Origin: Candidatus Giovannonibacteria bacterium RIFCSPLOWO2_12_FULL_44_15
Lineage (GTDB): Bacteria; Patescibacteriota; Minisyncoccia; JACPKW01; UBA11713
Reading direction: 5' to 3'
NCBI GenBank assembly: GCA_001778905.1
Contig: MFIQ01000012.1
Span: 1-40,145 of the forward strand
Length of the DNA stretch: 40,145 nucleotides
A program made the position numbers and the translations under genes. Below, piece after piece: positions 36,748 through 39,910 of the stretch. The notes under the pieces were generated by a model. The model was not told where the DNA came from. It ran no database searches and saw only the letters and a list, made by a program, of their open reading frames with translations. The first letter of the stretch is position 1, and each line of letters starts with the position of its first letter.

Positions 36748-36987
36748 TTAGATTAAAGTATTAGAAGGGGAAGTGAATTCAAAGGCTTTAAATGCGCTTG
36801 CCCAATCTATTTGCAGGTAAGAGAAAACGGATAAAGCTCCTAAGAAGACGGCCGCGATTATAAATACAGCGCTCGCGATATTGGCTTTTCTGGAGAACGA
36901 ATAAACGTTGAGGTGCCATACTACCGCCGAGGATAACGCCGCGTATCCCAGCAAAAATAAAATTAGTAATGCAAACCCAATTGTCAT
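36748..36987 (-). CDS. Small membrane protein
   Basis: 79 aa with two to three TM helices; between PH-domain gene and ruvB tail. Confidence 0.6.
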
Positions 36988-37208
36988 GCTAGAAACGTGC
37001 TTTGCTCCGCGAAATTGCGCCCGAGGTGTTCGTAAGCGCGCCTTGTCGCGATTCTGCCGCGAGGCGTCCTCTCGACGAAACCGGAACGCATTAAATACGG
37101 CTCGTATACTTCTTCAATGGTTTCTTTTTCCTCGGAAGTCGCTGCGGCGAGAGTCTGAAGACCCACAGGGCCGCCCCCAAATTTGGAAATTATAGTCTCA
37201 AGAATCAT
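36984..37208 (-). CDS. ruvB: RuvB C-terminal winged-helix segment, in frame after a TAA
   Basis: [62 protein letters not shown] = canonical RuvB C-terminus. Confidence 0.85.
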
Positions 37209-37220
37209 CCGGTCCGTAGA

Positions 37221-37997
37221 TTAAAGCCCGACCGGGTCTATTTCAAGAAGGTCGAGCGTTTTTAGAGCCAAGTCTCCGGTAATGGAGTTTGATTTTTCGA
37301 CTTGGGCAAAATCCCTGCAGCGTTTAAGCAACCTATTTGCGACCCTGGGAGTGAAACGCGATCTTTTCGCAATCTCCGACATGGCCCCTTCGTCGATATT
37401 TATTCCGAGAATCTTTGCGGATCTGGCGATAATTCTCTTAATTTCATCTTCAGTATAGAAATCGAGCCGGTAAGTTCCTCCCGAAAATCTTGAACGCAAG
37501 GGAGAGGAAAGAAGCGCTATTCTTGTTGTCGCCGCAATAAGCGTGAAGGGGGGGAGTTCGAGTTGTATGGTGCGGGCAGAGGGGCCTTTGCCGATAATTA
37601 TGTCGAGCGAGCGCGATTCAAGCGCCGGGTATAAAATTTCTTCGATTAATTTATTTAACCTATGGGCTTCATCGATGAATAAAATATCTCCTGCGGAAAG
37701 ATTGGTTAAAATAGAAGCAAGGTCGCCAACTTTCTCAATTGCCGGCCCCGAAGTTACTTTAACTTGAGCATTTAGCTCCCTAGAGATCAAATGAGCGAGC
37801 GTAGTTTTCCCAAGTCCCGGAGGACCGTAGAAAAGAAGGTGTTCAATCGGTTCGCCCCGCTCTTGGGCAGCCTGGATCAGTATTTTCAAGTTCTTTTTAA
37901 TCAGTTCTTGCCCGATATATTCATCCCAGCTTTTGGGCCGCAAGGTTTGGTCGAGCGAGCGGTCGTCTTCACGAAATTTTGTGTCCGTTATAGCCAC
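37221..37997 (-). CDS. ruvB: RuvB ATPase core, ends at in-frame TAA (GTG start)
   Basis: [50 protein letters not shown]; same reading frame as 36984-37208. Confidence 0.93.
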
Positions 37998-37999
37998 TA

Positions 38000-38028
38000 T
38001 TGACTTTTTATTGATTATCTGCTAAACT
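38000..38028 (+). promoter_or_regulatory. Sigma70-type promoter candidate for the ncRNA
   Basis: TTGACT (38000-38005) - 17 nt - TAAACT (38023-38028). Confidence 0.6.
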
Positions 38029-38035
38029 TATGCAC

Positions 38036-38190
38036 AGGTTTTGACCTTGAGTCTCTAGGCATATCCGGAGTTTTTTCAGAAGGACGGCTTGGTTCCCCGC
38101 CTTGGCGGGATTTACTGGCGCCACTCCTCAGAAATTCTCTTTACTCATCCTACCCATAGTATGAGACTTGCCTAGAGGCTCGTGGTCAGG
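38036..38190 (+). ncRNA. Candidate structured ncRNA, 6S-like architecture
   Basis: Long closing stem 38042-38061 / 38169-38188 (19 of 20 positions pair, counting G-U), inner hairpins 38067-38127 and 38144-38165, promoter just upstream; no ORF explains it. Confidence 0.5.
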
Positions 38191-39856
38191 ATCCTATAAC
38201 TCTTTCTAACTCTTCCAGCGTTGTTACGCCAGAGAGTAACTTTATAATTCCATCCTGCTTCATAGTCAGCATCCCTTGTTTTATCGCGGCTTCGCGAAGC
38301 GCGGACTCGGAGGGCTCGGTCAAGATTAATCTTTCTATAGCATCGTCAATTTCAAAGCCTTCAAAAACTCCGATCCGCCCCTTATATCCTGTCCCTCCGC
38401 AGGCATCGCATCCGACGACGGCAAAAAATTCAGCTTTCCCCAAATCCGGCTTTTCGATACCCTTGGGAAATTTTTCCATCTCTGCTTTTATTTTTTTGAT
38501 GTCTTCCGGGCTCGCCTCGGTCTTTTTTTTGCAGGCCTTGCAGAGCTTTCGGACTAGGCGCTGCGCCATCGCAATATTTATCGCGGGTGCGATTATATTC
38601 GGCTTAACTCCCATATCGATTAGACGGGGAACGGTTCCAGGCGCGTCATTCGTGTGCAGAGTTGAGAAGACAAGGTGTCCGGTCAGTGCGGCATGCATGG
38701 CGATTTCAGCCGTCTCGAAGTCGCGGATCTCGCCTACGAGTATAATGTCTGGGTCTTGGCGCAAAATAGCGCGAAGTCCGTTCGAAAAATCATATCCTTT
38801 TTCCGGATCGACTTGCGTCTGCGTTACGGAAGGAAGGTGATATTCAATCGGGTCTTCTATTGTTATTATTTCAAGCCCCGGCTCGTTTACAGTTTTTACG
38901 AAAGCATAAAGCGTCGTTGTTTTGCCAGATCCAGTCGGCCCCGTCGTTAAAATCATCCCGTTAGGCTTATCAAGCTGTTTTTGTATTATTGCGTAGAATT
39001 GCGGGTTCATCCCCAAATCCTCGAGTTTGAGCGCGATTGTTTTGGGGTGGAGTATTCTCAAAGTAACCGCCTCGCCGTTGGGCCCAGGCAAGGTCGCGGT
39101 TCGGACCTCGATATCCGTATCTTTGGTCCTTATAGTAAACCTCCCGTCTTGCGCTTTATCCTTAACATTCAATTTCAATTCCGATATTAGTTTTACTCTA
39201 GAGAGAAGAAGTTTATATATTTTTTGAGGGAAAGAAACCGCTTCTTGCAGGACGCCATCCATTCGGTACCGGACTACAACATTAACTTCTGCCGGCTCGA
39301 CATGTATGTCGGATGCGTCGAGCGCCAGTGCCCCCGCGATTATCATCTCCAATACTTCCGAAACTTTCCTTGTTTCCTCGGTCTCCCCTATTCCTAGAAG
39401 CAGTGTTTTAAGATCGGAAATTTTTTTTACCTTAGTCTGAAATTCGTCGAGCCGCTTCTGCGAGACGGCGACCATTGCGGATTTAATTTCCTCGAAGGCC
39501 GGGAGCTCCGCGTATCTGGAGAAAGCTTTCTCGAGGCTTTTGGGCGAGACGAGAAAAAGTTCAACTATAAATCTCTTACCTTTAAGATCTTCGATTATTT
39601 GTTTTGCTTTCAGGATTTCTGGATTGACGAGGGCGACGGACACTTTTTTGCCGACGGATTGGAATGCGACGATTTTTCCGTCCCTGGCATCCCTTTCGGA
39701 AATTAATTTCAGGGAATCGAGGTCTATCGTAATCGAGGTTAGGTCCAAATAAGGGAGACCCCGTTTTTTGGCCATAATTTCGGCCAATTCCTCCTCCTCC
39801 TTGTCCCTAAGTTCGGCGAATCTGCTCTTGCTTTTTGATTCTTCAAAGTCAGCCAT
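38186..39856 (-). CDS. GspE/PilB-type secretion/pilus ATPase
   Basis: ILTTGPTGSGKTTTLYAFVKTV, ITIEDPIEYHLPSVTQTQV, LRQDPDIILVGEIRDFETAEIA, CKACKKK/CDACGGTGYKGR zinc motif; start at internal ATG 39856 likely. Confidence 0.93.
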   Translation of the reverse strand: MADFEESKSKSRFAELRDKEEEELAEIMAKKRGLPYLDLTSITIDLDSLKLISERDARDGKIVAFQSVGKKVSVALVNPEILKAKQIIEDLKGKRFIVELFLVSPKSLEKAFSRYAELPAFEEIKSAMVAVSQKRLDEFQTKVKKISDLKTLLLGIGETEETRKVSEVLEMIIAGALALDASDIHVEPAEVNVVVRYRMDGVLQEAVSFPQKIYKLLLSRVKLISELKLNVKDKAQDGRFTIRTKDTDIEVRTATLPGPNGEAVTLRILHPKTIALKLEDLGMNPQFYAIIQKQLDKPNGMILTTGPTGSGKTTTLYAFVKTVNEPGLEIITIEDPIEYHLPSVTQTQVDPEKGYDFSNGLRAILRQDPDIILVGEIRDFETAEIAMHAALTGHLVFSTLHTNDAPGTVPRLIDMGVKPNIIAPAINIAMAQRLVRKLCKACKKKTEASPEDIKKIKAEMEKFPKGIEKPDLGKAEFFAVVGCDACGGTGYKGRIGVFEGFEIDDAIERLILTEPSESALREAAIKQGMLTMKQDGIIKLLSGVTTLEELERVIGS

Positions 39857-39910
39857 ATCGCCTAATTTTACCCCTAATTTAAGGGCTATTCTAGGCATTT
39901 CCCAAGGAGC

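What the first reader, a model, noticed from the sequence alone, without database searches (positions are those of the whole stretch)
38000..38190. Candidate structured ncRNA (6S-like shape) with its own promoter between ruvB and gspE
Seen: 38042-38061 (TGACCTTGAGTCTCTAGGCA) pairs with 38169-38188 (TGCCTAGAGGCTCGTGGTCA) across about 107 nt, with one T/T mismatch and a few wobbles. Inside are a long hairpin (GGAGT...ACTCC closing, GGC/GCC, CCCGCCTTGGCGGG tip) and a second small hairpin on the 3' side (CTCAT-C-CTA-CCCA-TAG-T-ATGAG). A TTGACT-N17-TAAACT promoter points into it on the + strand. Established: 6S RNA has a long closing stem, a central bubble that may carry a small 3'-side hairpin, and a terminal stem. 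Inference: this may be a divergent 6S RNA or an undescribed structured RNA. The 3' stem overlaps the gspE stop codon, so pairing there also constrains coding sequence.
Basis: partly seen in the sequence, partly recalled or inferred. Interest (0 to 1): 0.75.

Follow-up and report, generated by a model that had tools for sequence, protein, structure and literature searches.

The report
Undescribed structured RNA in Paceibacteria
Between two ordinary genes of an uncultured ultra-small bacterium lies a gene for a folded RNA, about 150 to 180 bases long, that occurs throughout its class, always beside the same gene, and matches no RNA family known to us; what it does is not yet known.

Summary
Window 38039-38191 (+) encodes a structured, independently transcribed RNA. 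Its fold scores z = -5.1. Helices covary in 80 related loci (92% of pair cells paired; no shuffle or slid register comes close). A consensus sigma-70 promoter precedes it in most loci. G-U pairs, not A-C mismatches, fix the + strand. The family is single-copy and occurs in at least 176 of 384 genomes of class Paceibacteria (over 60 families; laxer filters add 12 of 22 'negatives'). None was found in other classes of the phylum. It sits divergently from ruvB and convergently with pilB in practically every locus examined.

It is not 6S RNA. Rfam finds no match to any family. The junction holds hairpins on short linkers instead of an open bubble, and the 6S motifs are missing. Real 6S RNAs, which I found with Rfam, a motif and a custom model, lie elsewhere in 22 genomes that also carry this RNA. 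RNase P RNA and tmRNA also lie elsewhere in the window's own genome, and the SRP hallmarks are absent.

It is therefore an undescribed class-wide RNA family. Most likely it acts in trans as a protein-bound (RNP) RNA; that mechanism is inferred and no expression was tested.

The parts
38000..38005 (+). -35 hexamer TTGACT of the RNA's sigma-70-type promoter
   Evidence: in relatives TTGACA-N17-TATAAT-like, at least 10/12 matches in 53 of 82 loci versus 3.2% of shuffles
38023..38028 (+). -10 hexamer TAAACT (17-nt spacer)
38039..38191 (+). Core of the structured RNA (full model R2 match, 133 bits, E = 4e-32; single copy in the genome)
   Evidence: the reverse strand scores only 27.9 bits
38037..38061 (+). 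5' strand of closing helix P1 (mismatch at 38047); sequence-conserved top CTCTAGGCA
38169..38193 (+). 3' strand of closing helix P1 (TGCCTAGAG...); overlaps the pilB stop codon at 38186-38188
38062..38066 (+). 5' junction linker; in most relatives outside this family a covarying hairpin (P1a) stands here
38067..38140 (+). Main arm P2 with internal loops and variable apical hairpin (38096-38109); invariant GG/CC pairs 38082-38083/38126-38127 and conserved tandem wobble UGG/CUG 38090-38092/38115-38117
38144..38165 (+). 3' hairpin P3 with exposed CCCA loop (38153-38156); UnCCCAn loop recurs in many families
37221..37997 (-). ruvB (Holliday junction helicase, N-terminal part), divergent from the RNA; flanks the RNA in 66 of 67 loci tested
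38186..39898 (-). pilB/gspE-type ATPase gene, convergent with the RNA; flanks it in 67 of 67 loci tested

Best explanation
38039-38191 (+) is the gene of an undescribed, single-copy, independently transcribed structured RNA, typically 150-180 nt, found across class Paceibacteria (Patescibacteria/CPR). SHOWN: a consensus sigma-70 promoter precedes the + strand RNA; the RNA has a closing helix of about 23 bp around a tight junction carrying a variable 5' hairpin (lost in this family), a long arm with invariant GG/CC and UGG/CUG elements, and a 3' hairpin with a CCC-type loop; it is a different RNA from 6S, RNase P RNA and tmRNA. INFERRED (about 0.45): it is an abundant trans-acting housekeeping RNA that works as a ribonucleoprotein. 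The sequence-conserved top of P1 and the conserved wobble/GG-CC arm would be the protein docking surface, and the exposed CCCA loop would contact a partner. Its place beside ruvB would be inherited gene order, not a cis mechanism.
For: Thermodynamics, z = -5.1. Covariation: 22/57 pairs compensated in an unguided 5-sequence alignment; 92.9% of cells paired in 30 sequences and 91.8% in 85 rows, with slid registers at 40-51% and 0/500 shuffles reaching the observed values. Strand: 634 G-U versus 106 A-C cells, and R2 scores 133 bits on + versus 28 on -. Promoter: at least 10/12 matches, nearly all with 17-nt spacing, in 53/82 loci versus 3.2% of shuffles. T-runs just after the 3' end in 47/82 loci versus 34% shuffled and 30% in flanking windows. 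Distribution: 176/384 class genomes; 12 of 22 'negative' class loci recovered beside ruvB with laxer filters; in the phylum sample all 15 hits were in this class. Independent confirmation by gene order: RNA between ruvB and pilB, antisense to both, in 66/67 loci although the model knows nothing of the flanks. Independence from the neighbours: RNA kept where pilB is not adjacent (L173, L180, L184), and in G018 (L007/L014) other coding sequence, not ruvB, lies upstream while the promoter is intact. Conserved positions cluster in P1's top, the GG/CC and UGG/CUG elements and the P3 loop. No Rfam family matches.
Against: No transcript was measured. CM-built alignments lean towards their structure, so pair counts from A3, A5 and A9 are partly circular; the unguided alignment, the slid registers and the fixed gene order are the safeguards. 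Gene order this stable could also mean a cis role. No partner protein is known, and R2 does not detect the RNA in every Paceibacteria genome. Terminator support is moderate.
Confidence: 0.75

Rival explanations
1. Divergent 6S RNA (or a 6S-2 type paralogue): the closing stem and junction mimic an open promoter, bind RNA polymerase-sigma70 and template product RNAs.
For: Overall outline (closing stem, arm, 3'-side hairpin), size and strong own promoter resemble 6S. No 6S was recognised in the window's own genome.
Against: 22 genomes hold this RNA and a separate, motif-bearing 6S. No RF00013 match to this RNA, even permissively. R2 and the 6S-arm model R3 do not cross-match. The junction has short linkers and up to two hairpins, not an open bubble, and the GGGAG...CACCCACCU motifs are absent.
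Confidence: 0.08
2. Cis-acting element: the divergent/antisense transcript controls ruvB or pilB, by overlapping promoters, antisense pairing with read-through pilB-ruvB mRNA, or as terminator of pilB.
For: The gene order ruvB-RNA-pilB is fixed in 66/67 loci. In the window the RNA's -35 box lies 3 nt from the ruvB start codon and a GATAAT on the minus strand lies inside the RNA promoter.
Against: G-U/A-C asymmetry and scores say the + strand RNA is selected, not the minus-strand mRNA. The RNA persists with pilB 0.7-1.4 kb away or not adjacent, and with other coding sequence in place of ruvB upstream. A plain antisense transcript or terminator does not need this conserved internal architecture.
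Confidence: 0.2
3. Trans-acting base-pairing sRNA whose exposed CCC loop binds G-rich sites on mRNAs; the rest is a stability scaffold.
For: The P3 loop UnCCCAn recurs across many families.
Against: The loop is not universal (for example L112, L114, L115). Most conservation lies in helices, more typical of protein recognition. No target was tested.
Confidence: 0.2
4. A diverged housekeeping RNA: SRP RNA or RNase P RNA of these reduced genomes.
For: Rfam's bacterial small SRP RNA was not found in 15/15 Paceibacteria genomes tested.
Against: RNase P RNA is elsewhere in the same genome (G000 C13, 169.6 bits) and tmRNA too. The apical loop is variable with no GNRA/AGCAG SRP signature. No Ffh/FtsY-type P-loop motif was found in the window's genome, so no SRP RNA is expected there.
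Confidence: 0.03
5. Chance palindrome or intergenic repeat (MITE, REP).
For: Long inverted arms.
Against: Single copy per genome, deep covariation, fixed position.
Confidence: 0.01

Closest known systems
6S RNA (SsrS, Rfam RF00013), including the Patescibacteria 6S RNAs found here
   Same: Size, long closing helix, long arm, hairpin on the 3' side of the junction, own sigma-70 promoter, one copy, conserved neighbour gene (6S is linked to ygfA in many bacteria, PMC4064990).
   Different: No open single-stranded bubble; often a second hairpin on the 5' side; different conserved sequences; no CM match; coexists with a true 6S in at least 22 genomes.
Structured bacterial ncRNAs of unknown function (raiA, OLE, ROOL, GOLLD; from my own knowledge)
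   Same: Stand-alone, deeply conserved, elaborately folded, with unknown or partly known function.
   Different: Unrelated in sequence and fold (no Rfam match); smaller; confined to Paceibacteria; fixed next to ruvB.
Bacterial SRP RNA (RF00169)
   Same: Small structured housekeeping RNA that would be expected in most bacteria but is not found by model in these genomes.
   Different: SRP signature loops missing, multi-branched fold, and no Ffh/FtsY motif in the window's genome.

Membership tests
6S RNA (RF00013) | Long closing stem and terminal arm | tested here: met
6S RNA (RF00013) | Single-stranded central bubble flanked by conserved G-C pairs (definition in PMC4064990) | tested here: not met
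   Covarying 5' and 3' hairpins separated by short linkers, mostly 1-5 nt
6S RNA (RF00013) | Match to the 6S covariance model | tested here: not met
   No hit at gathering or at E <= 10 in the window; none in 19 relatives at E <= 5
6S RNA (RF00013) | Is the genome's 6S, i.e. no other locus fills that role | tested here: not met
   Separate 6S in 22 genomes with this RNA; in the window's own genome no 6S was recognised
6S RNA (RF00013) | Binds RNAP-sigma70 and templates pRNA | not testable with these tools
   needs biochemistry
Bacterial SRP RNA (RF00169) | Conserved apical tetraloop and AGCAG internal loop; CM match | tested here: not met
   RF00169 finds nothing in 15 genomes that include the window's; apical loop variable
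RNase P RNA (RF00010) | Is the genome's RNase P RNA | tested here: not met
   A separate RNase P RNA at G000 C13:4278-4655
tmRNA | tRNA-like domain and tag reading frame | tested here: not met
   None in the window; the tmRNA is on G000 C1
Any Rfam 15 family | CM match at the gathering score | tested here: not met
Stand-alone structured ncRNA gene | Covarying fold, own promoter, defined strand | tested here: met
Stand-alone structured ncRNA gene | Own terminator | tested here: inconclusive
   T-runs enriched, 47/82 versus about 30-34%; no intrinsic terminator in the window itself
Stand-alone structured ncRNA gene | Discrete transcript | not testable with these tools
   no RNA-seq available

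The most novel reading that the evidence does not exclude
A previously unknown housekeeping ribonucleoprotein of Paceibacteria: a near-universal, strongly transcribed RNA at the level of 6S or tmRNA, unique to these ultra-small and mostly host-dependent bacteria and serving a core process not seen in other bacteria.
Probability: 0.4. Interest if true: 0.9.

Novelty: categorically new. Interest (0 to 1): 0.78.

Why it matters
Few RNAs specific to the candidate phyla radiation are known; my literature searches found none for this class. A single-copy RNA kept, with its promoter and its place beside ruvB, across more than 60 families of highly reduced genomes is probably important to these cells. 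It gives a concrete target for metatranscriptomics and pull-downs. It also shows that Patescibacteria possess ordinary 6S RNAs that Rfam's cut-off mostly misses.

Tried and rejected
6S identity: rejected by coexistence, model scores and junction anatomy. SRP RNA: considered because RF00169 is missing from 15/15 genomes; rejected because the signature loops are absent and the window's genome shows no Ffh/FtsY motif. RNase P RNA and tmRNA: found elsewhere in the same genome. Minus-strand element (pilB 3' UTR or terminator, ruvB leader): rejected as the main function by G-U/A-C asymmetry. Mobile repeat: single copy. Promoter-only DNA matches in G044 and G028 (L005, L006) were not the RNA; those genomes carry it elsewhere. 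The short Rfam hits below threshold are chance. Literature searches for Patescibacteria/CPR noncoding RNAs returned nothing describing this RNA. A first 6S alignment (A4) misaligned the closing stem, so only the conserved arm was modelled (R3).

Full report
Observation. The RNA strand folds at -67.8 kcal/mol, z = -5.14, 0 of 200 shuffles as stable. The flanking genes are ruvB and a PilB/GspE-type ATPase, best match PilB but below NCBIfam's cut-offs. The window belongs to a genome of Candidatus Giovannonibacteria, class Paceibacteria: its congener G001 is MFIO01000001 (the class name is my own knowledge of where this group is placed).

Conservation and covariation. DNA search found the element in G001 (89% identity), G006 (71%) and G004 (67%), and, through its core, in G018 of another family. 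An ordinary MAFFT alignment of these five gives a consensus fold of 57 pairs, 22 of them with compensatory double changes. A covariance model (R1) found it once per genome in 93 of 384 class genomes. The 30 best revealed a covarying 5' hairpin (P1a), missing in the window and its closest relatives. The refined model R2 found 176 of 384 genomes in 66 families by my count. In a phylum-wide sample, all 15 hits were in this class. In 22 class loci scored negative, laxer filters recovered 12 more, all immediately upstream of ruvB. Over 85 aligned rows (80 loci plus 5 reverse-strand duplicates) 91.8% of pair cells are paired and 58 of 61 pairs show double changes. Slid registers give 41-51% and no shuffle reaches the observed values. 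These CM-made alignments favour the structure, so the unguided alignment and the gene order below carry the independent weight.

Gene order. The model knows nothing of the flanks, yet 67 of 67 loci have pilB downstream in convergent orientation and 66 of 67 have ruvB upstream in divergent orientation. The exception, G018, has other coding sequence upstream that resembles a transposase (my reading, not searched), while the RNA and its promoter are intact. In L173, L180 and L184 pilB is not adjacent but the RNA stays beside ruvB. The RNA is therefore an independent gene in a very stable neighbourhood.

Transcription and strand. A TTGACA-N17-TATAAT promoter with at least 10/12 matches precedes the RNA in 53 of 82 loci, against 3.2% of shuffles. 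T-runs follow it in 47 of 82, against 30-34% in controls. G-U pairs outnumber A-C by 634 to 106, so the + strand is the functional RNA.

Not 6S. Rfam's 6S model does not touch the window or its relatives. It scores weakly (29.9-39.9 bits, cut-off 46.4) at other places in G014, G043, G195 and G102, where the sequences carry a 6S arm (GGGAG...GCGGGCACCCACCUGG), several with promoters. In other classes of the phylum, 3 of 240 genomes exceed the cut-off. A motif search added G036, G060, G131 and G167. An arm model (R3) then found 6S at E <= 1e-8 in 15 of 38 genomes, among them G018 at 75 bits. In all, 22 genomes carry both RNAs at separate places. The two models do not cross-match. 6S is defined by a single-stranded central bubble (PMC4064990); this RNA has hairpins on short linkers there. 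One caveat: no 6S is recognised in the window's own genome or in its family, so the exclusion rests on orthologues in other families.

Not other housekeeping RNAs. RNase P RNA and tmRNA are elsewhere in this genome. SRP RNA was not found in 15 of 15 genomes, but this RNA lacks the SRP signature and the genome shows no Ffh/FtsY P-loop motif.

How it probably works (inference). Conservation is concentrated in the sequence of P1's top, invariant GG/CC pairs and a UGG/CUG tandem wobble in the arm, and a CCC-type loop in P3, while apical and 5' hairpins vary freely. That pattern suits a protein-bound RNA acting in trans (about 0.45), ahead of a cis role at ruvB-pilB (0.2) and a base-pairing sRNA (0.2). 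No expression, binding partner or phenotype was tested.

Novelty. No Rfam 15 family matches, and literature searches returned nothing; unpublished or subscription-only descriptions cannot be excluded. I call it categorically new as an RNA family, with function open.

Noticed in passing
window 37221-37223 (-): ruvB is interrupted by an in-frame TAA; the C-terminal RuvB_C domain continues in the same frame (36984-37208), and the congener G001 has an intact gene. It may be a real nonsense mutation or an assembly error.
   Followed up: partly
L008, L009, L065-L074, L135, L136, L146, L147, L152-L167: Patescibacteria carry genuine 6S RNAs, mostly far below Rfam's RF00013 cut-off; a dedicated arm model finds them easily (up to 79 bits).
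   Followed up: yes
whole genome G000, family f1; also f36 and f41: No recognisable 6S RNA in the window's family or in the tested genomes of families f36 and f41: lost or strongly diverged.
   Followed up: partly
whole genome G000 and 14 relatives: Bacterial small SRP RNA (RF00169) undetected in 15/15 genomes, and no Ffh/FtsY-type P-loop or DTAGR motif in any G000 ORF: the SRP pathway may be missing.
   Followed up: partly
L007/L014 1-649 (G018): Coding sequence resembling a transposase (not searched) lies upstream of the RNA where other genomes have ruvB; the RNA and its promoter are intact.
   Followed up: no
window 38000-38028: The RNA promoter abuts the ruvB start codon, and a GATAAT on the minus strand lies inside its spacer, so the divergent promoters may overlap.
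   Followed up: no
window 38221-38248 (+): A second promoter-like site TTGTTA-N16-TATAAT, antisense within the 3' end of pilB.
   Followed up: no
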